From a virus: a DNA stretch of 64,000 nucleotides. The notes below the pieces were generated by a model. That model worked only from the letters and a program-made list of their open reading frames with translations, was not told where the DNA came from and ran no database searches. This document shows positions 5,726 to 64,000 of this stretch, piece by piece. Both the position numbers and the translations under genes were made by a program. Every line of letters begins with the position of its first letter. Position 1 is the stretch's first letter. The DNA lies in IMG/VR virus record IMGVR_UViG_3300023184_005116, positions 38,758 through 102,757 of that record. One strand, given 5' to 3'.

Positions 5726-8506
5726 ATGCCACAGATTAACATATTAAACGTACTCCAAGGAGATAACCAGTCAACTATAGTTGACAAGCTAAATTATAAC
5801 TTCGATCAGATTTTAAGTGCTGGTGGAGGACCTCAAGGTCAACAAGGATTTATTGGTCCAACTGGTCCAATAGGTCCACAAGGACCTCAAGGTGTACAAG
5901 GTATACAAGGACCTTCGGGGACTAAATGGTTTGTACAAGATACCTCTCCTGCTTCTGGAGCAATAACAGGAAGCAGCCCGTGGAATTATCCTGCAATTGG
6001 TGACTATTGGTTAGATCCGGATTCAGCAAATCAAGAGATCTATGTATTTACGGCAACAGGTTGGGTAGACAGCGGATATGGATTAGCAGCGGGAGATATA
6101 TTTCAAAGATTTACCCCTATTTCTCTAAATGGAGGAGCTACAGGAAAAGGTATATTTATAGCAGGAACTGCTTCTGATAATAGCGTTATATTATCAGATG
6201 CTTCTATTGCAGATTATACTCCAGGAGCTAGTGCTATAGGTAATACTAACTATGAAAATTCCAAACTTAAAATTGCTACAGATTTAACAAGACAAAAGCT
6301 TATAAGCTTTGGTAGATCTAATTACGATACAACATCAGAAACTGGATCTGCTAGTAGTTTAAAAAATCCTTCAATTCAATGGACTTCTGTTGCTCCTTCA
6401 GGTACAGGAGATTATGATATTACATTTACTAACCCTGCAGGAAGTATTAATATTTCTTCTAATATGGGTGGTGGATCTGGAGGTATTAATATGTATTCTC
6501 AAGAAGAAATTACCGCAGAATCTGCTACTCAAAATATTCAATTAAAAACTGCTTCAGTTGGTAAAGGTGTTTTTACAGATGTTGCTACTGGTGGTGCTGG
6601 ATTCTTTGAAGTATCAAATTTAGGCGGTAGCACAGTTAATCAAAACTACCCCCATTTCTATAGCGATAGTGTAGGTGCAGGTATCGGTGTAGGTACTGGA
6701 CAATTTAAAAGTACAGGAAATGATGCAAGAAAGCTTTCGGTTTTAGGTAACGTAAGTATATCAAAAACAGTAGGAAAGCATACAGGAACTTTATTTACAG
6801 GGAGTTCTTTACTTCCTGCTAATAATAATAAAGGTAGTTTATACGTAGAAGGATTTGTTGGGATAGGAACTACTGATCCTACTGCATATAACGGTTCAAC
6901 AATACCTCTTAACACTACAGGACCAGCAGAAGCTCAAGGAGCTTTTCCTCAGCTTTGGGTTAGTTCTCCTAACTACGGTCCTGGATTACAAGTTAAAACA
7001 AGACCTTCGTCATCAACGGGAGCACTTTCGCCTCCTAATGTAGCATCTATAGGAAGAACAGTTATTGGGGATGGGGTATTTGATGCTGCTGCAGTTTCTA
7101 GTTCTTTTGATAAAATAAGCGGAACTGGTCCTGATTTTTCTCAGGAACTTTTCTTAAATTCTGGGTATCTATTTGGAGCAAGAGCAGCTTTAATTAGCTA
7201 TCAACAAAAGATTTCAAATTCTTTAAATACAACAGGAAATGCTCCAGTATTTGCAATAACTACTTATAGTCCAACTAGTGTTGGGCCATACTCTCCTGGT
7301 ATAACATCGGGACTAGTTACAACAATACAAGTTAGAAATTCCAATAACCAGTTAGATATAATGTCTAACGGAACTGGAAGTGCTTCACTTAACAATGTTA
7401 ATATTGGAGCTAGAAATAGTTATTTGTTAAACGTAAAAGCAGGAACTACTACTGATCCTGGATATGGTAATATTAAAATAGGAAATAATGCAGGGACAAA
7501 TAATGGAGTCGTTGGTTCATTGCCAGGAAATATTAATTTTTACTCTCCAGGAAGCGATGGACCATACAGAAATCATAGTTTAACTGTTTCAGGAATACAA
7601 ACAATAGGTACTGAGGATCCTTTGTCTAGCTTTTCAGTTTCGAGCAGTTCCACAGGAGCAGGCGTTTCGAATTATACAAACTTAAAGATTCACAGAAATC
7701 TTTATAGTGGAGTCCATTATGCTGCTGGAGGACATCCTGATCCGTTTAGTTATTTTACAGGACCGAAGGTAAATAATTATCCGAACGGAATAGAAATAAC
7801 ATCAGACATAGGAGATGACTCTGGTACTTCCTTTATTAAGGGATTAAACAGGTCTGTTGCTATAGCAGTTTCTGCTAGGAATTTGTTCGAGTCTCGGCCT
7901 ATTCCTTTTGGTAAAGGTACTGCATTAGCTGCTCCTACTAATGGATTCTTTGTCAGCGATACTGGACATAACGTTTCTATTGGTGGATTACCACTATATG
8001 GAGGTGCAGCATTAGATGTTAGTGCATCTCCAGGAGGTAATGCTGTTGCAATAAATACTCAAGGTGATTTATCAGTTGTAGGTAATACTGACATTTTGGG
8101 AAATCTTGGGGTTACAGGAGACGTATCTATTCTTAATGGAGGATTAATTATTCTTAGAAATAGCGTACAGTTTCCACACCCTTTTGTCCCTTTAACTTCT
8201 TCCACTGATTGGTTCTTAAGTCCAACAAACGAGCAAAGTGCTCCTTATGATTGGCCTGCTGTAAATTACGATAGGTATATTACTGTACAAGCAGGTAGCT
8301 CTGGTTCAGGGAATGCTAGATATGAATGCTATGCTGAAAATAATATAGGATCAGGATCCTATTATCTCCCTGAAAGAAGGGTTATGGATGCTTATAGCTC
8401 TGTGTCATTTTTAGTAGCAGCTGGATGTAGATTTAGGGTTGTAATAGCAAATACAAGTGGTTTTCAATCGTATATAAGTATTATATCTAAAAAATTCGGT
8501 AGATAA
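5726..8506 (+). CDS. Tail fibre-like protein with collagen-type repeats
   Basis: A 926-residue protein. The N-terminus (MPQINILNVLQGDNQST) is followed at about residues 34-65 by Gly-X-Y collagen-like repeats (GPQGQQGFIGPTGPIG and onward), a common trimerisation element of phage fibres. The rest is Gly/Ser/Asn-rich and low in charge, as in beta-helical fibre shafts. The C-terminal 110 residues (after about 815) look like a compact receptor-binding or knob domain. It probably forms a host-contacting fibre. It is preceded by a late-promoter-like element and its stop overlaps the next start. The fibre assignment is good; receptor and attachment point are unknown. Confidence 0.7.
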   Translation: MPQINILNVLQGDNQSTIVDKLNYNFDQILSAGGGPQGQQGFIGPTGPIGPQGPQGVQGIQGPSGTKWFVQDTSPASGAITGSSPWNYPAIGDYWLDPDSANQEIYVFTATGWVDSGYGLAAGDIFQRFTPISLNGGATGKGIFIAGTASDNSVILSDASIADYTPGASAIGNTNYENSKLKIATDLTRQKLISFGRSNYDTTSETGSASSLKNPSIQWTSVAPSGTGDYDITFTNPAGSINISSNMGGGSGGINMYSQEEITAESATQNIQLKTASVGKGVFTDVATGGAGFFEVSNLGGSTVNQNYPHFYSDSVGAGIGVGTGQFKSTGNDARKLSVLGNVSISKTVGKHTGTLFTGSSLLPANNNKGSLYVEGFVGIGTTDPTAYNGSTIPLNTTGPAEAQGAFPQLWVSSPNYGPGLQVKTRPSSSTGALSPPNVASIGRTVIGDGVFDAAAVSSSFDKISGTGPDFSQELFLNSGYLFGARAALISYQQKISNSLNTTGNAPVFAITTYSPTSVGPYSPGITSGLVTTIQVRNSNNQLDIMSNGTGSASLNNVNIGARNSYLLNVKAGTTTDPGYGNIKIGNNAGTNNGVVGSLPGNINFYSPGSDGPYRNHSLTVSGIQTIGTEDPLSSFSVSSSSTGAGVSNYTNLKIHRNLYSGVHYAAGGHPDPFSYFTGPKVNNYPNGIEITSDIGDDSGTSFIKGLNRSVAIAVSARNLFESRPIPFGKGTALAAPTNGFFVSDTGHNVSIGGLPLYGGAALDVSASPGGNAVAINTQGDLSVVGNTDILGNLGVTGDVSILNGGLIILRNSVQFPHPFVPLTSSTDWFLSPTNEQSAPYDWPAVNYDRYITVQAGSSGSGNARYECYAENNIGSGSYYLPERRVMDAYSSVSFLVAAGCRFRVVIANTSGFQSYISIISKKFGR

Positions 8507-59847: not shown

Positions 59848-59876
59848 GTTATGTAAACAAAAATATTACTTATAAC
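59848..59876. repeat. Degenerate empty cassette at the distal end of the array
   Basis: GTTATGT (59848-59854), AAACAAAAAT and then TTATAAC (59870-59876) have the same flank sequences seen at cassette ends elsewhere (GTTATAAGTATGTAAAAC and TTACTTATAAC) but enclose no gene. A 26-codon open frame (59826-59906) crosses it and is probably not a gene. Confidence 0.4.
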
Positions 59877-60000
59877 GATACTCAGATATATTCAGTTGTT
59901 TATTAAATAATAAAAAATATGATTACAGAAGAAAAATACTTAAAAGCATTACAGGTTGTTAAAGACTATGAAAAACAATTGAATATATCTGTTGTTAGAT
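59870..60000. repeat. attC-like site 1 (131 bp, encloses a start codon)
   Basis: Outer boxes TTATAAC (59870-59876) and GTTAGAT (59994-60000). Inner arms 59883-59901 and 59973-59991 match at 18 of 19 positions. The ATG of cassette gene 1 (59919) lies in the loop. Confidence 0.75.
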
Positions 60001-60098
60001 GTAGTTGCGAACCAGTAAAAACTAAAGATGAAAATGGTAATGGATTATTTGTGAGTCCTTGGTGTTGGAAGTGCAACACTTGGTGCAATTACATCTAA
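59919..60098 (+). CDS. Cassette gene 1: Cys-rich small protein
   Basis: 59 residues, stop formed by the TAA of the next box (ATCTAAC). MITEEKYLKALQVVKDYEKQ is a helical N-terminus encoded within attC-like site 1; the rest has VVRCSC and SPWCWKCNTWCNYI, five Cys that may bind metal. A resembling layout (helix then CxxC pairs) occurs in cassette gene 2. No family recognised. Confidence 0.55.
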   Translation: MITEEKYLKALQVVKDYEKQLNISVVRCSCEPVKTKDENGNGLFVSPWCWKCNTWCNYI

Positions 60099-60220
60099 CG
60101 TATAGATGCAAAAGCAGTTTAATTTTAATTATATGACAAAGAAACAAAAAGTAGAAGAAGCTATCAAAGAAGCAGAAAAGGAATTAGAACGCCTTAAATT
60201 GCTTTTACATAGTGTTAGTG
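60093..60220. repeat. attC-like site 2 (128 bp, encloses a start codon)
   Basis: Boxes ATCTAAC (60093-60099) and GTTAGTG (60214-60220). Arms 60106-60122 and 60194-60210 match at 15 of 17 positions. The loop holds the ATG of cassette gene 2 at 60133. Confidence 0.75.
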
Positions 60221-60306
60221 GCAGTGCTTTAGAAGTATGCCCCTATTGTAAAACTAAAAATAGACATTGGTATGCAAAAGATTATTGGTGCTGTTCGTTT
60301 TGTTAG
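60133..60306 (+). CDS. Cassette gene 2: small zinc-ribbon-like protein
   Basis: 57 residues from the ATG at 60133; an in-frame ATG at 60106 lies within the palindrome arm and is less likely. A coiled-coil N-terminus (KVEEAIKEAEKELERLKLLL) is followed by VCPYCKTKNRHWY and YWCCSFC, two CxxC knuckles typical of zinc ribbons. The first part is encoded by the attC-like site. Function unknown. Confidence 0.55.
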   Translation: MTKKQKVEEAIKEAEKELERLKLLLHSVSGSALEVCPYCKTKNRHWYAKDYWCCSFC

Positions 60307-60312
60307 CATTGC

Positions 60313-60435
60313 CACTAACGGTTGGGTGTATATGTAGTGATTTACACTGAACTTTATTAGAAGAAATGAATATAATTATTAACAGACAAGGTTGATTAGA
60401 TGTAGTAAAATCATTACATATACACCCTGTTATAA
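60313..60435. repeat. attC-like site 3 (123 bp)
   Basis: Boxes CACTAAC (60313-60319) and GTTATAA (60429-60435). Arms 60324-60345 and 60405-60427 pair almost fully, with one extra base and one mismatch. It shares CGGTTGGGT after the left box with the 93-bp sites. Confidence 0.8.
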
Positions 60436-60464
60436 GTAGTAAAACAAAAATAAACTAAACAGAT

Positions 60465-60758
60465 ATGGAAACCTTTAGAGAAAAACAAGAAAAATTTGAT
60501 AAATTAATTTCAGAACTTAATTCTGATTTTATTTGTGGTGCAGCAGTTGGAACAAAAGTAAAAGATAGTTCTTTGTATATAGCGGAAGAGTCAACAAAAA
60601 TTTATGGTACTGAAAAATACAAAATAGGAACATTTAACCAAAAAAGTGTAATTATTGACCCACATATTAAATGGGGAGATATGAGAATTTTTGATGAATC
60701 TGGAACGGAATTAATTAATTTATCAAATTTTGGATTTGATATAATGGATATGATTTAA
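60465..60758 (+). CDS. Cassette gene 3: hypothetical protein
   Basis: 97 residues beginning METFREKQEKFDKLISELNS; helical start then beta-rich (YKIGTFNQKSVIIDPHIKWG). No signal peptide, Cys motif or recognised family. The body is flanked by GTTATAAGTAGTAAAACAAA on the left and the complementary TTTTTGTTTTATTTCATTTA on the right. Confidence 0.55.
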   Translation: METFREKQEKFDKLISELNSDFICGAAVGTKVKDSSLYIAEESTKIYGTEKYKIGTFNQKSVIIDPHIKWGDMRIFDESGTELINLSNFGFDIMDMI

Positions 60759-60784
60759 TTTTTGTTTTATTTCATTTATACTTT

Positions 60785-60833
60785 GTTATGTTTAACGAAG
60801 TGTAGTTGTGAGGAACGAACAATTAAACATAAC
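60785..60833. repeat. Empty mini-cassette
   Basis: GTTATGTTTAA (60785-60795) and its exact complement TTAAACATAAC (60823-60833) enclose 27 bases with no gene. The preceding site is reduced to TTTATAC, TTT, GTTATGT (60775-60791) without inner arms, so this looks like a decayed cassette. Confidence 0.5.
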
Positions 60834-60880
60834 GGATGAGTGTAAAAAATCGTTTTAATGTTTTTTACACTTTGTTATAA
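60827..60880. repeat. attC-like site 4 (54 bp)
   Basis: Boxes ACATAAC (60827-60833) and GTTATAA (60874-60880). Perfect 10-bp stem 60840-60849 / 60861-60870 around the loop TCGTTTTAATG (60850-60860). Confidence 0.8.
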
Positions 60881-60905
60881 GTATGTAAAACAAAAATTAT
60901 ACAAT

Positions 60906-61067
60906 ATGAAAGTAAAAATAATAAAAGAACACAATGGAATACCAGAGGGTTCAGTGATACATGTGGAAAAAGAATTGAAAAACGATTACAAAGGAATTTG
61001 GTCAAGTATGATGGGTTCTTATACAGTTAAGGTAAAGAAGAAATATTGTGAAATTAAAAACTCATAA
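60906..61067 (+). CDS. Cassette gene 4: small basic beta-rich protein
   Basis: 53 residues from the ATG at 60906 (MKVKIIKEHNGIPEGSVIHV), preferred over an earlier start inside the site because of the A-rich leader. GSVIHVEKELKNDYKGIW and YTVKVKKKYCEIK suggest a small SH3-like barrel. Function unknown. Its ends share about 25 bp of inverted complementarity (60874-60900 against 61064-61089). Confidence 0.5.
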   Translation: MKVKIIKEHNGIPEGSVIHVEKELKNDYKGIWSSMMGSYTVKVKKKYCEIKNS

Positions 61068-61082
61068 TTTTTGTTTTATTAC

Positions 61083-61214
61083 TTATAACGTATGGCAGCT
61101 AAACGCTGTTGGAGATTTGAAACACTAAATTATAAACTTAAAATAAAATTAATATGAAAAACAAAACTTCAAACTTAGACAAAACCGCCAATAGCGATTT
61201 AGGTGTTGTTAGCG
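61083..61214. repeat. attC-like site 5 (132 bp, encloses a start codon)
   Basis: Boxes TTATAAC (61083-61089) and GTTAGCG (61208-61214). Arms CTAAACGCTGTTGG (61099-61112) and CCAATAGCGATTTAG (61188-61202) pair with one mismatch and one extra base. The ATG of gene 5 (61154) lies in the loop. Confidence 0.75.
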
Positions 61215-61384
61215 GTAGTTTAACTCATATTCCACTATTTCAGTATATTGCTGCGGTGGAAGCACATAAGAACACGTTAGATTTACTTGCAATAGTACAA
61301 AATGACAAAAAGGAATTGAAATTAGATTTAGAAGCAGCATATAAAGAAATTGACCGATTGAACGTCAAACTAAATTACCGCTAA
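61154..61384 (+). CDS. Cassette gene 5: helical hypothetical protein
   Basis: 76 residues beginning MKNKTSNLDKTANSDLGVVS; the first 20 are encoded within site 5. The C-terminal half is a coiled coil (KKELKLDLEAAYKEIDRLNV). The stop TAA falls in the CGCTAAC box of the next site. No family recognised. Confidence 0.55.
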   Translation: MKNKTSNLDKTANSDLGVVSGSLTHIPLFQYIAAVEAHKNTLDLLAIVQNDKKELKLDLEAAYKEIDRLNVKLNYR

Positions 61385-61432
61385 CGTCCCATGATAAACA
61401 ATCGTTTTAATGTTGTTTATCATTTGTTAGGT
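61379..61432. repeat. attC-like site 6 (54 bp)
   Basis: Boxes CGCTAAC (61379-61385) and GTTAGGT (61426-61432). Perfect 11-bp stem ATGATAAACAA (61391-61401) with 61413-61423 around loop TCGTTTTAATG (61402-61412). Confidence 0.85.
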
Positions 61433-61472
61433 TTTGTCATTAATTTGTTTTACCTTTGTAAAAATTAAAAAT

Positions 61473-61691
61473 ATGGAAAATAAAAACACAAACGAAGAAC
61501 TTGAGTATTTTCAAAATAAACTCAAGGAAACTATGGGTAAAGGATTACCTAAAAAATATCTTGAAACAACTGACTTGGGTGAAGTCGATAAGGAATATAA
61601 ACATAGATTCAAAGAACGAATTGAAAAACACTTAACAGAAGTTGATAGAATTAAAAATATGATAGGCGATTCAAAACAAATTAATGATTGA
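61473..61691 (+). CDS. Cassette gene 6: charged helical protein
   Basis: 72 residues from the ATG at 61473 (MENKNTNEELEYFQNKLKET), Lys/Glu-rich and helical. Upstream is TACCTTTG (61451-61458), a match to the TAnnTTTG -7 element, so this cassette may carry its own promoter. No family recognised. Confidence 0.55.
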   Translation: MENKNTNEELEYFQNKLKETMGKGLPKKYLETTDLGEVDKEYKHRFKERIEKHLTEVDRIKNMIGDSKQIND

Positions 61692-61784
61692 ACCTAACGG
61701 TTGGGTATATACGAAGTACCCATATCACGAACTTTAAATTTAGTACAAACCTTAATGGGGTATTTCGTATATACCTTGTTATAA
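61692..61784. repeat. attC-like site 7 (93 bp)
   Basis: Boxes ACCTAAC (61692-61698) and GTTATAA (61778-61784). Arms 61704-61723 and 61755-61775 pair with one extra base and one mismatch. The loop contains GAACTTTAAATTTAGTA, similar to the loop of site 12. Confidence 0.8.
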
Positions 61785-61796
61785 ACTGTAAAAATT

Positions 61797-61985
61797 ATGG
61801 ATTTAACACACGAACAAAAATTAGAAAAGAAACAAATAGTTAGAGATGAACTGAAAGGGAAGATAAAACATCTTTATATGTCATTTCTAAGTGAAATGGA
61901 AACACAATATCCACCTTGGTTAAATAAAGATGATGTTATTAATGTTTTGTCTTCCCTGATATTAGATGAGACGAAACTTAAATAA
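61797..61985 (+). CDS. Cassette gene 7: charged helical protein
   Basis: 62 residues (MDLTHEQKLEKKQIVRDELK), helical, starting only 12 bases after the right box of site 7. No recognised family; the WLNKDDVINVLSSLIL segment is amphipathic. Function unknown. Confidence 0.5.
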   Translation: MDLTHEQKLEKKQIVRDELKGKIKHLYMSFLSEMETQYPPWLNKDDVINVLSSLILDETKLK

Positions 61986-61995
61986 TTTTTATTGT

Positions 61996-62049
61996 TTATA
62001 ACGATTGCAAATAAAACATCGTTTTAATGTGTTTTATTTGTTGTTATGT
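61996..62049. repeat. attC-like site 8 (54 bp)
   Basis: Boxes TTATAAC (61996-62002) and GTTATGT (62043-62049). Perfect 11-bp stem CAAATAAAACA (62008-62018) with 62030-62040 around loop TCGTTTTAATG (62019-62029). The stem differs from site 6 while the loop is the same. Confidence 0.85.
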
Positions 62050-62083
62050 TTTAGTTTTAAAAATTTTATACAAATAAAAAAAT

Positions 62084-62329
62084 ATGAAATACGAAAGAGA
62101 ATACCAAGTGTTTGCAAAAGAAATAACCGATAAGTTTATATCAATGGTTACTGGTGAATTACCAACGCAATGTTTTTGTGGAGAAATGTCTGATGGGCCA
62201 AGTAGAATACCAACAGAAGAAGAGCAACGAGAATTTTTTAAAGAAAATAACAAATATGCGTTGGAGTGGTTGAACAAAAATATGGTGACTTATGACGAGT
62301 GGATTGCGAAGCATAAAACAAATTCATAA
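62084..62329 (+). CDS. Cassette gene 8: hypothetical protein
   Basis: 81 residues (MKYEREYQVFAKEITDKFIS), helical with a short CFCGEMSDGPSRIPTEEE loop. No recognised family. Acidic and soluble; function unknown. Confidence 0.55.
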   Translation: MKYEREYQVFAKEITDKFISMVTGELPTQCFCGEMSDGPSRIPTEEEQREFFKENNKYALEWLNKNMVTYDEWIAKHKTNS

Positions 62330-62344
62330 AATTTTTAAAATTAA

Positions 62345-62437
62345 ACATAACGGTTGGGTATTGGCGAAGTGCCACCAGTACAAACTTAAATTCAAGGCAC
62401 AAACTATCTGTGGCATTTTGCCAATACTGTGTTATAG
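62345..62437. repeat. attC-like site 9 (93 bp)
   Basis: Boxes ACATAAC (62345-62351) and GTTATAG (62431-62437). Arms TATTGGCGAAGTGCCAC (62359-62375) and 62410-62426 match at 15 of 17 positions. Confidence 0.8.
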
Positions 62438-62480
62438 GTAGTTGTTTTAAAAATTAGCGTTGGCATTAAATGGTTTAAAT

Positions 62481-62762
62481 ATGAAAATTCCAAATACAAC
62501 AGACGAAAAACCTTATATTGAATTTAGAATTGATAAAAAAGGTAAAATTAAATTATCAGCTACATCAAATTGGTGGGGAGGAAAAAATGCTGGTTTCTCA
62601 TCTTCTGATGGAACGGAAGGTAATACTTGCGAACCAAAGCATTTAAAAGCATACATTAAAGCATTTAAAGAGAAAAAGATTAAGAATATTGAGAAAGAAA
62701 TTTTAGCATTACAAAAGCAATTAGAAGTTGTTGAATCTGAAACCGAGCGTTGGGATTTTTAA
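62481..62762 (+). CDS. Cassette gene 9: hypothetical protein
   Basis: 93 residues from the ATG at 62481 (MKIPNTTDEKPYIEFRIDKK), chosen over a TTG at 62460. A beta-rich N-terminal half with SATSNWWGGKNAGFSSSD and a helical C-terminus (KIKNIEKEILALQKQLEVVE). The cassette body has about 23 bp of terminal inverted complementarity (62431-62453 with 62756-62778). Function unknown. Confidence 0.55.
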   Translation: MKIPNTTDEKPYIEFRIDKKGKIKLSATSNWWGGKNAGFSSSDGTEGNTCEPKHLKAYIKAFKEKKIKNIEKEILALQKQLEVVESETERWDF

Positions 62763-62771
62763 AACAATTAC

Positions 62772-62903
62772 CTATAACGTTTTGCGGCTAACAGAAGTTG
62801 GCGATTACGAAGCACAAATTTTCAATTATAAAAAAAATTAAATACAAAGCAATGAACTACAATAAACCACAAAGCCGCCAATTTTTGTTAGGTGCTGTTA
62901 TAG
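62772..62903. repeat. attC-like site 10 (132 bp, encloses a start codon)
   Basis: Boxes CTATAAC (62772-62778) and GTTATAG (62897-62903). Arms 62784-62803 and 62876-62895 pair at 16 of 20 positions, two of the mismatches being G-T type. The ATG of gene 10 (62852) lies in the loop. Confidence 0.75.
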
Positions 62904-63091
62904 GTAGTATTTTGAGGTTGGGTTTCAAGATTATTAATTGCAATCACTTTAAAATGAAAGCACATAACGGTAAACCTTATTATAAAAGTATTGTAAAAAT
63001 TAAGGGATTTAGAACTGCTGTCGTTGACAGATATGATGGAAATAGAAGTACAAATAGGTTTTATTGGCGTGTCGGCAAATATTACCTATAA
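62852..63091 (+). CDS. Cassette gene 10: basic hypothetical protein
   Basis: 79 residues from the ATG at 62852 (MNYNKPQSRQFLLGAVIGSI). The N-terminal 16 residues are encoded in site 10; the rest is basic with aromatic residues (RSTNRFYWRVGKYYL at the end). The stop TAA is inside the CTATAAC box of the next site. No family recognised; a nucleic-acid-binding role is possible from charge. Confidence 0.55.
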   Translation: MNYNKPQSRQFLLGAVIGSILRLGFKIINCNHFKMKAHNGKPYYKSIVKIKGFRTAVVDRYDGNRSTNRFYWRVGKYYL

Positions 63092-63139
63092 CGGTTGATG
63101 ATAAACAATCGTTTTAATGTTGTTTATCATTTGTTATAA
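63086..63139. repeat. attC-like site 11 (54 bp)
   Basis: Boxes CTATAAC (63086-63092) and GTTATAA (63133-63139). Perfect 11-bp stem ATGATAAACAA (63098-63108) with 63120-63130 around loop TCGTTTTAATG (63109-63119); stem and loop identical to site 6. Confidence 0.85.
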
Positions 63140-63179
63140 GTATGTATTATTTTTGTTTTACCTATTAAAAAATTAAATT

Positions 63180-63395
63180 ATGACACAAGAAAAACTAATT
63201 GAAATTTGGGACACTATACCAAATAAACATAAAAATTATAGTGGGGTTGAGGTAGTTGGTGAAATTGAAATTATGGGATATTTCACGAGAAAAGAATTAG
63301 ATGTTGCTGAGAAAAAAGGTTGGTTGTATAATAATCATGCTGAGTATGATATGGGAGAACCATCTTATAATTTAATAAACTCAAAACAAAAATAA
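63180..63395 (+). CDS. Cassette gene 11: hypothetical protein
   Basis: 71 residues (MTQEKLIEIWDTIPNKHKNY), mixed alpha/beta and acidic. The central GEIEIMGYFTRKELDVAEKKGWL could be a small winged-helix-like unit. No family recognised. Confidence 0.55.
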   Translation: MTQEKLIEIWDTIPNKHKNYSGVEVVGEIEIMGYFTRKELDVAEKKGWLYNNHAEYDMGEPSYNLINSKQK

Positions 63396-63401
63396 TATTA
63401 C

Positions 63402-63494
63402 TTATAACGGCTGGGTATATGTGAAGTACCTTACCACAGAACTTAATAATTTAGTAGAAACATTATAAGGTATTTCACATATACCTTGTTATAA
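63402..63494. repeat. attC-like site 12 (93 bp)
   Basis: Boxes TTATAAC (63402-63408) and GTTATAA (63488-63494). Arms 63414-63433 and 63466-63485 match at 19 of 20 positions. The loop GAACTTAATAATTTAGTAG resembles that of site 7. Confidence 0.8.
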
Positions 63495-63507
63495 AACGTT
63501 TTATTTT

Positions 63508-63723
63508 ATGGAAAATAATATTGAAAAATGGATGAAAGAGTGGGTTGATAGAACATCAAAAGTTAAATATGAAAACTCTTTCAATGAGAAGAGTGATGAA
63601 TGGATTGAGATTGAAGGTATTGGTAGATTTAAAGGACTTGAGATTGTCTCAGAAGAACATCAAGATATAAATGAGATAACAATCAATCTCAAATATGATG
63701 TGTGGGATAAAAATGTTTTATAA
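63508..63723 (+). CDS. Cassette gene 12: acidic hypothetical protein
   Basis: 71 residues (MENNIEKWMKEWVDRTSKVK), acidic, nearest to the recombinase. It ends ITINLKYDVWDKNVL with the stop TAA inside the final TTATAAC box. In normal integron logic this would be the most recently inserted cassette. No family recognised. Confidence 0.55.
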   Translation: MENNIEKWMKEWVDRTSKVKYENSFNEKSDEWIEIEGIGRFKGLEIVSEEHQDINEITINLKYDVWDKNVL

Positions 63724-63776
63724 CTATATTATATATGCAACTCTAGTTAATTGATTCATTATTAATACTTTAGAAC
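63718..63776. other. Candidate attI region
   Basis: The last TTATAAC box (63718-63724) has no inner palindrome after it, only about 50 AT-rich bases before the recombinase ATG. On the minus strand it reads GTTATAA at the junction with cassette 12, which is where an attI crossover would be expected in a canonical integron. No direct evidence beyond position and box. Confidence 0.4.
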
Positions 63777-64000
63777 ATGAAAAAGACCGACTATTACAAG
63801 ATTTGCGAACAAAAATTGAAGTACTTGAATTATTCGGACAGAACGGTTGAGTGTTATCTTTCCTATATAAATCAGTTTTTGGATAGAATAGAAATTCCAC
63901 CTACTCGGCTAGGTTCACAAGACTTTCAATCCTATTTGGACAACTATAAATTCACTTCGGTTTCTCAACAGAATCAAGTAATATATGCAATCAGATTTCT
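63777..64000 (+). CDS. Tyrosine recombinase, IntI/XerC-like (N-terminal part; runs off the window)
   Basis: 74 codons from the ATG at 63777 remain open to the window edge. KYLNYSDRTVECYLSYINQF and SVSQQNQVIYAIRF match the SAM-like core-binding domain of XerC/IntI recombinases (YSxxTxxxYxxxIxxF and xxTQNQALxAL patterns). The catalytic domain with Arg, His and Tyr residues, and the extra IntI-specific helix that would separate IntI from XerC, are outside the window. Position at the end of the attC-like array favours an integron integrase. Confidence 0.7.
   Translation, partial: MKKTDYYKICEQKLKYLNYSDRTVECYLSYINQFLDRIEIPPTRLGSQDFQSYLDNYKFTSVSQQNQVIYAIRF

What the first reader, a model, noticed from the sequence alone, without database searches (positions are those of the whole stretch)
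59848..64000. Integron-like cassette array carried by a T4-like phage
Seen: twelve small one-gene units, each with an attC-like palindrome (TAAC and GTTA outer boxes, complementary inner arms, variable loop), followed by a gene with the N-terminus of an IntI/XerC-type recombinase. Known: attC arrays plus IntI define integrons, typically chromosomal or on mobile plasmids and transposons. Inferred: the phage carries its own integron and can gain, lose and shuffle tiny genes of unknown function, possibly anti-defence genes. None of the twelve products matches a family I know.
Basis: partly seen in the sequence, partly recalled or inferred. Interest (0 to 1): 0.95.

Follow-up and report, generated by a model that had tools for sequence, protein, structure and literature searches.

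The report
Phage gene-cassette array resembling an integron
Large tailed phages, probably infecting Bacteroidota, carry their own gene-swapping platform that works like a bacterial integron but uses a different recombinase, letting them pick up, drop and reshuffle tiny genes that in some phages counter bacterial defences.

Summary
Twelve attC-like hairpins punctuate 59.87-63.49 kb, none as good occurs in the other 98.6 kb of this phage contig, and the truncated gene at 63,777 is a tyrosine recombinase N-terminus. In relatives, 60 of 61 phage recombinase loci have such sites just 5' of the gene, plus a conserved insertion site (TAACTATNATATAT). Near-identical phages differ by whole cassettes with breaks exactly at TAAC, and one phage holds an exact 394-bp duplicate cassette, one copy at the insertion site. 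So cassettes are captured, moved and lost.

Three corrections. (1) The enzyme is not IntI: it lacks the IntI-specific insertion, scores below the IntI cut-off and falls in a Bacteroidota clade that includes a rAID-type recombinase. (2) The hairpin travels with the gene to its right. Read from the insertion site, the layout is integron-like, but the genes are inverted and some hairpins contain the start codon. (3) The contig ends at 64,000, so the enzyme is known only through relatives.

Best reading: a phage lineage of integron-like cassette systems run by a non-IntI, XerA/rAID-like recombinase. Mobility is well supported by comparison; folded single-stranded substrates and circular intermediates are inferred. 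New variant of a known kind.

The parts
59848..59876 (+). Probable 3' end of an older, truncated unit at the distal edge of the array (..ATTACTTATAAC), just right of the RNA-ligase gene
   Evidence: Has the unit 3'-end form (rc GTTATAAGTAATATT..) but no matching 5' end was found; read from the sequence
59873..60099 (+). Unit 1: hairpin 59873-59997 plus body; ORF 59919-60098 (59 aa) starts inside the hairpin loop; stop TAA lies in the TAAC core
   Evidence: Site score 17; own ends match
60096..60319 (+). Unit 2: hairpin 60096-60217 plus body; ORF 60133-60306 starts in the hairpin and runs through GTTA
   Evidence: Site score 13; own ends match
60316..60784 (+). Unit 3: hairpin 60316-60432, ORF 60465-60758 (97 aa); its 3' end and the left half of the next hairpin are missing
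   Evidence: Site score 18; repeat family D4 shows only the right half-hairpin before 60785
60785..60833 (+). 49-bp body between GTTATGTTTAA and TTAAACATAAC with no gene; remnant
   Evidence: Own ends match
60830..61089 (+). Unit 5: short hairpin (loop TCGTTTTAATG) plus body, ORF 60909-61067
   Evidence: Site score 11; own ends match
61086..61385 (+). Unit 6: long hairpin with start codon in the loop; ORF 61154-61384 runs through GTTA, stop in the core
   Evidence: Site score 12; own ends match
61382..61698 (+). Unit 7: short hairpin plus body, ORF 61473-61691; the unit is 86% identical to DNA of the 462-kb phage LR756500.1
61695..62002 (+). Unit 8: ~80-nt hairpin plus body, ORF 61797-61985
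   Evidence: Site score 16; own ends match
61999..62351 (+). Unit 9: short hairpin plus body, ORF 62084-62329
   Evidence: Site score 11; own ends match
62348..62778 (+). Unit 10: ~80-nt hairpin plus body, ORF 62481-62762
   Evidence: Site score 14; 24-bp terminal inverted repeat, 96%
62775..63092 (+). Unit 11: long hairpin with start codon in the loop; ORF 62852-63091 runs through GTTA, stop in the core
   Evidence: Site score 12; own ends match
63089..63408 (+). Unit 12: short hairpin plus body, ORF 63180-63395
   Evidence: Site score 11; own ends match
63405..63724 (+). Unit 13, next to the insertion site: ~80-nt hairpin plus body, ORF 63508-63723; own end AAAATGTTTTATAAC
   Evidence: Site score 18; 3' end read from the sequence
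63721..63746 (+). attI-like insertion site TAACTATATTATATATGCAACTCTAG; no hairpin; conserved right of TAAC while the DNA to its left varies between phages
   Evidence: Motif in 69 of 78 relatives; exact breakpoints
63777..64000 (+). N-terminal 74 residues of a tyrosine recombinase, cut by the contig end; full-length relatives 263-268 aa
   Evidence: PF13495 2.3e-10; 81% identical relatives

Best explanation
This is an integron-like gene-cassette platform belonging to a lineage of large, mostly T4-like phages. A tyrosine recombinase related to Bacteroidota XerA/rAID-type enzymes, not IntI, inserts cassettes at an attI-like site (TAACTATNATATAT) about 50 bp upstream of its own gene, and excises cassettes at hairpin sites. 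Each cassette is [hairpin - GTTA - one small gene - TAA|C]. Shown by comparison: the unit boundaries, their exact use as recombination breakpoints, cassette duplication and shuffling, and insertion next to attI. Inferred: excision as circles, whose joined ends re-form a long attC-like cruciform; recombination through one folded strand (the G.T-rich, more stable strand, which is the same strand relative to attI as the recombinogenic strand of integrons); and a benefit from trying out small anti-defence or host-takeover genes.
For: Own-end pairing of units in the window: 0 of 100,000 permutations. In 335 phage units the pairing extends to 15 bp with a fixed mismatch at position 11 (4% match; G in one end, A in 99% of the other). 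Inner stem has many pair types per position, a 5/2 spacer asymmetry and a second fixed G.T at L18/R15. Plus strand more stable in 329/335 (controls 267/322). 60/61 loci have sites within 3 kb 5' of the recombinase, 4 have sites 3' of it; attI motif in 69/78. Breaks exactly at TAAC between phages 99-100% identical over 1.2 kb on the recombinase side (L007/L011, L007/L137, L133/L134, L017/L136). Exact 394-bp cassette duplicate in L179, one copy at attI. Order c13 c0 c14 c15 c16 c1 versus c14 c15 c16 c1 c23 c0-attI versus c13 c23 c0-attI. Left hairpin 97-100% conserved with bodies at least 93% identical found in different contexts. Bacterial relatives show the mirrored gene polarity and mirrored mismatch: A at position 11 in 32/32, antisense strand more stable in 22/23.
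Against: No reads, circular junctions or experiments. The recombinase in this contig is incomplete. All relatives with the full system are metagenomic contigs. 'At least 9 of 10 own-end match' was used to find units, so positions 1-10 there are not independent (and positions 11-15 are). Homologous recombination inside shared hairpins could move some cassettes. One listed same-body pair (L157) looks like an artefact of overlapping calls.
Confidence: 0.85

Rival explanations
1. A canonical (IntI) integron, or a fragment of one, captured by the phage from a bacterium, as described for Vibrio, Shewanella and P1 phages.
For: attC-like hairpins, an attI-like site, and intI-attI-array order on the minus strand. 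TIGR02249 (IntI) does hit the relatives, at 146-158 bits.
Against: TIGR02249 cut-off is 265; the IntI1 control scores 508. The KGxKDR-to-HxLRH spacing is 53-54 aa versus 100-101 in IntI and 60-66 in Xer. IntI forms a separate clade, 100/100. Cassette genes are antisense to the attI polarity.
Confidence: 0.04
2. A rAID-type (recombinase-associated acquired interbacterial defence) gene array of Bacteroidota that was taken over by phages; in essence the same system in a new carrier.
For: The phage recombinases nest in the Bacteroidota clade that includes the Parabacteroides plasmid recombinase, which sits in a rAID-like setting. rAID is defined by a tyrosine recombinase, co-oriented short genes and conserved intergenic motifs (PMC12247911). 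The intergenic repeats of that locus are themselves TAAC-starting imperfect hairpins.
Against: Only about 42% identity. The array lies on the 5' side of the recombinase in phages and on the 3' side in bacteria. Gene polarity relative to attI is opposite. No immunity genes were recognised. Sites end in GTTA here but in ATTA in that locus.
Confidence: 0.08
3. A static phage island of small genes separated by terminator-like hairpins, reshuffled only by homologous recombination between repeats.
For: Hairpins of one class are up to 98% identical between phages and could serve as homology. Small-gene islands are common in T4-like phages (general knowledge).
Against: Breaks fall at TAAC with 0-2 bp of shared sequence to the left. 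The pairing is between the two ends of one unit, not within a site. The recombinase is almost always adjacent. No Rfam family matches.
Confidence: 0.02
4. Assembly chimera joining a phage contig to a bacterial integron contig.
For: The region lies at a contig end and has lower GC (0.28-0.29 versus about 0.33).
Against: The same recombinase and array occur inside many independent viral contigs with a T4-type portal gene, including contigs of 256-464 kb. Homologues of the window's flanking RNA-ligase gene lie near the recombinase in six relatives. The phage recombinases are a clade at least 60% identical, apart from all bacterial ones at 52% or less.
Confidence: 0.01

Closest known systems
Integrons (IntI + attI + attC cassette arrays)
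   Same: One-gene cassettes; imperfect palindromic sites with paired R'/R'' and L'/L'' arms; GTT core; an adjacent recombinase gene reading away from the array with an attI-like site between them; strand-biased hairpin; cassette gain, loss and shuffling.
   Different: The recombinase lacks the IntI domain and is in another clade; R arms are 15 bp with a fixed mismatch at position 11 rather than 7-nt boxes; genes are antisense to the attI polarity; the hairpin carries the gene's 5' leader and often its start codon; carried by large phages.
rAID (recombinase-associated acquired interbacterial defence) arrays of Bacteroidales (PMC12247911)
   Same: Related short tyrosine recombinase, co-oriented small genes, conserved intergenic motifs that look like attC hairpins.
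   Different: Recombinase at the other end of the array, opposite gene polarity, T6SS immunity cargo, bacterial host.
Phage integrons and CALINs (Qi et al. 2023, PMC9892861)
   Same: attC-type cassettes in phage genomes, some with methyltransferase genes; attC function shown for virulent phages.
   Different: Those are IntI-type integrons or arrays without any integrase. Two of the phages they report, P12002L and MW202573, show no array of the present type.
XerA/XerC/XerD and dif-type modules
   Same: XerA is among the closest solved structures by sequence and fold.
   Different: Xer proteins form a separate branch; the sites are 40-120-nt hairpins in arrays, not single 28-bp dif sites (dif length from general knowledge).

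Membership tests
Integron | IntI integrase with the IntI-specific additional domain near patch III | tested here: not met
   Spacing 53-54 aa versus 100-101 in IntI; TIGR02249 at most 158 bits against a 265 cut-off, IntI1 control 508; separate clade. Tested on relatives, as the window's gene is cut off.
Integron | Array of attC sites (R''-L''-loop-L'-R', GTT core) between small genes | tested here: met
   12 sites, none elsewhere in the contig; covariation of stems. No IntegronFinder/HattCI model could be run; extrahelical bases are replaced by fixed G.T mismatches.
Integron | attI insertion site next to the integrase gene | tested here: met
   Conserved TAACTATNATATAT, no hairpin, 69/78 loci; breakpoints there.
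Integron | Cassettes mobilised as units (turnover) | tested here: met
   Exact duplicate, shuffled orders, exchange at attI.
Integron | attC recombined as a folded single strand by the cognate integrase | not testable with these tools
   Only predicted strand bias, 329/335.
Integron | Cassette genes oriented away from attI, expressed from a promoter (Pc) near attI | tested here: not met
   318 of 335 units have the gene pointing towards attI.
rAID | Tyrosine recombinase of the rAID type | tested here: inconclusive
   Same broad Bacteroidota clade, but only one rAID-like recombinase was in the tree and its exact place is unresolved.
rAID | Recombinase upstream of the co-oriented array | tested here: not met
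   Array lies on the 5' side of the recombinase in 60/61 phage loci.
rAID | Orphan immunity genes against T6SS effectors | tested here: inconclusive
   No immunity family among the Pfam hits shown for 137 cassette proteins, but only 25 of 42 families were listed.
Phage-borne genome (T4-like) | Array lies in a phage genome with T4-type structural genes | tested here: met
   T4 portal PF07230 on 14 of the 39 viral records searched, one of them the huge-phage record LR756500.1; in this contig only replication genes (topoisomerase II, primase, helicase, DNA polymerase) were found, no portal.

The most novel reading that the evidence does not exclude
A second integron lineage: a non-IntI tyrosine recombinase that recognises folded single-stranded attC-like hairpins, shared by Bacteroidota and their large phages, with the phage branch having inverted its cassettes so that the recombination hairpin also supplies the leader and start codon of the gene. 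That would mean that folded-site cassette capture does not require the IntI-specific domain.
Probability: 0.5. Interest if true: 0.9.

Novelty: new variant of a known kind. Interest (0 to 1): 0.8.

Why it matters
Integrons are known mainly as bacterial devices, and the IntI-specific domain is used both to define and to search for them, so arrays run by another recombinase family are missed. Here large phages carry what looks like a working capture platform of their own, with very varied small cargo (256 clusters among 329 proteins) that includes DNA methyltransferases and an anti-Thoeris protein. It suggests how phages could trade counter-defence genes one at a time, offers a source for discovering them, and makes testable whether folded-hairpin recombination needs the IntI domain.

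Tried and rejected
Reading (a), gene followed by its own hairpin with the recombinase at the far end, was my first working model. It was dropped after the linkage test, the hairpin-encoded start codons and the hairpin-less terminal site. Self-carried promoters: the Bacteroidota motif TAnnTTTG is only weakly enriched (19/166 versus 3.5% in shuffles), so not claimed. Rfam: nothing. Pfam on ten of the window's twelve cassette products: no match above cut-off. Two phages reported by Qi 2023 were checked for the same sites: none of this type. LR756500.1 has the array but only an 88-residue fragment of the recombinase, elsewhere in the genome. The AlphaFold model is a moderate one (pLDDT 83, pTM 0.59) and only confirms the fold.
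Full report
OBSERVATION. The region is real and sharply bounded. A scan for TAAC...GTTA with complementary inner arms gives twelve sites scoring 11-18; the best unrelated candidate in the region scores 8. No site reaches 11 in the remaining 98.6 kb of the contig on either strand. A thirteenth site at 60,785 has lost its left half. The window ends at the end of its contig (102,757 bp), so the recombinase is only a 74-residue N-terminus (PF13495).

UNITS. The box pairing is not mainly within a site but between the two ends of one unit. In the window, the 20 nt after GTTA match the reverse complement of the 20 nt before that unit's own TAAC (150 matches; none of 100,000 re-pairings reaches this). 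This is what units that once closed into circles would show. Across 335 non-redundant units in related phages, pairing runs for 15 bp with one fixed mismatch at position 11: G (76%) at the gene's 5' side, and A (99%, as reverse complement) at its 3' side. Units were picked there with at least 9 of 10 end matches, so only positions 11-15 are independent evidence. The inner stem shows many pair types at most positions, a 5/2 spacer asymmetry and a second fixed G.T at L18/R15. Hairpins fall in three length classes, about 40, 80 and 117 nt.

WHICH HAIRPIN BELONGS TO WHICH GENE. When the same body occurs in different contexts, the hairpin to its LEFT is conserved (97-100% where bodies are at least 93% identical; background mean 50%, 99th percentile 90%), while its right neighbour differs. 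The clearest case is L179: one array holds an exact 394-bp duplicate that begins at the left TAAC with its hairpin and ends at TAAC; one copy is followed by the next hairpin, the other by the attI-like site. In the long hairpin class, 109 of 157 units have an ORF that starts inside the hairpin and runs through GTTA (12 of 103 in the middle class), and 64 of 318 plus-strand ORFs stop exactly at the TAA of TAAC. The unit is therefore hairpin-GTTA-gene-TAA|C.

INSERTION SITE AND POLARITY. Upstream of the recombinase lies a conserved TAACTATNATATAT without a hairpin (69 of 78 loci; sequences). Read on the minus strand the order is the integron order: recombinase gene reading away, attI-like site, then cassettes. 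The cassette genes, however, point towards attI (318 of 335). Bacterial relatives with similar arrays (L110 Bacteroidales bacterium CF, L122 Pelobium, L088 Pedobacter) have the array on the 3' side of the recombinase and genes pointing away from it. There the mismatch polarity is mirrored (A at position 11 of the 5' end in 32/32) and the antisense strand folds better (22/23), whereas in phages the gene-sense strand folds better (329/335). Measured from attI, both groups favour the same strand, which corresponds to the recombinogenic strand of integrons. This is predicted folding, not activity.

ACTIVITY BY COMPARISON. L007 and L011 are identical over 1,200 nt from TAAC through the recombinase and unrelated directly to the left; L007/L137 (99.2%), L133/L134 (99.0%) and L017/L136 (99.0%) behave alike. 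Cassette order differs between L027 (c13 c0 c14 c15 c16 c1), L142 (c14 c15 c16 c1 c23 c0-attI) and L143 (c13 c23 c0-attI). One whole unit of the window (61382-61698) is 86% identical to DNA of the 462-kb phage LR756500.1.

THE ENZYME. Full-length relatives are 263-268 aa, with the R/K/H-x-x-R/H/Y residues of tyrosine recombinases invariant. They score 171-195 bits on NF040815 (cut-off 220) and 146-158 on the IntI model TIGR02249 (cut-off 265), while the IntI1 control scores 508. IntI4 aligns in two pieces, and the KGxKDR-to-HxLRH spacing is 53-54 aa against 100-101 in IntI and 60-66 in Xer. In the tree the phage enzymes are one clade (98/99) within Bacteroidota and related phyla together with a Parabacteroides plasmid recombinase in a rAID-like setting; IntI (100/100) and Xer are separate. 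No relative in the genome-contig scan exceeds 52% identity, while the full-length viral relatives are mostly 60-100%.

CARRIER. A T4-type portal gene is present on 14 of the 39 viral records searched, including most of those above 250 kb. This contig has topoisomerase II, primase, helicase and DNA polymerase genes of phage families but no portal hit. Homologues of the RNA-ligase gene left of the array lie near the recombinase in six relatives. A chimera is therefore unlikely.

CARGO. 329 proteins fall in 256 clusters. Among 137 scanned, Pfam finds single matches to C5, N6/N4 and D12 DNA methyltransferases, RNA ligase and the anti-Thoeris protein Tad3; the Tad3 match of contig G025 falls inside the L048 cassette 5880-6488. 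The tested products of this window are unknowns.

KNOWN SYSTEMS. It works like an integron but fails the enzyme and gene-orientation tests. The nearest described system by enzyme is rAID (PMC12247911); the repeats of one rAID-like locus also look like attC hairpins. Qi et al. 2023 (PMC9892861) reported IntI-type integrons and integrase-less arrays in phages; two of their phages lack this type. IntegronFinder 2.0 found almost no complete integrons in Bacteroidetes (PMC9024848), which fits a system that such searches would miss. The literature held here is open-access only, so an unseen report is possible.

LIMITS. No reads or experiments; nearly all carriers are metagenomic contigs; loci were found through the recombinase, so the 60/61 association is conditional on that. 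Circular intermediates and folded-strand recombination remain inferences.

Noticed in passing
L226 9277-9322, 9951-9996, 10564-10609, 12468-12528, 13844-13889, 14303-14364: Intergenic repeats of a rAID-like locus on a Parabacteroides plasmid are TAAC-starting imperfect hairpins (TAACAAAGCG..CGCTTAACCATTAC), so rAID arrays may themselves be integron-like.
   Followed up: partly
L110, L122, L088 (bacterial genomes): Chromosomal arrays of attC-like hairpins with ordinary-sized genes next to a non-IntI recombinase in Bacteroidota.
   Followed up: partly
L048 5880-6488; also outside the arrays in the contigs of L138, L150 and L193: Tad3-like (Thoeris inhibitor) genes: one inside a cassette, others elsewhere in related phage contigs.
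   Followed up: partly
cassette proteins, e.g. L149 5765-6103, L143 6442-7293, L042 8128-8688: Some cassette proteins start with a motif like FxxFxNE (23/329 versus 7/277 internally), faintly like T4 capsid-targeting sequences (from memory); possibly injected internal proteins.
   Followed up: no
window 59919-60098 and L169 9133-9387: Leader peptides encoded in hairpin loops are alike (MITEEKYLKALQVVKDYEKQLNIS / MIEKEDYLKAKQIVQEYEKQLNIS) while the rest of the proteins differ, as if leaders and bodies were also exchanged.
   Followed up: no
L144 18247-20532: A second stretch of cassette sites about 7.5 kb downstream of the recombinase in the same phage.
   Followed up: no
L223 (Acinetobacter plasmid pJAT2044): The recombinase next to tet(X3) (named TnpF in another record) falls in the same Bacteroidota clade.
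   Followed up: no
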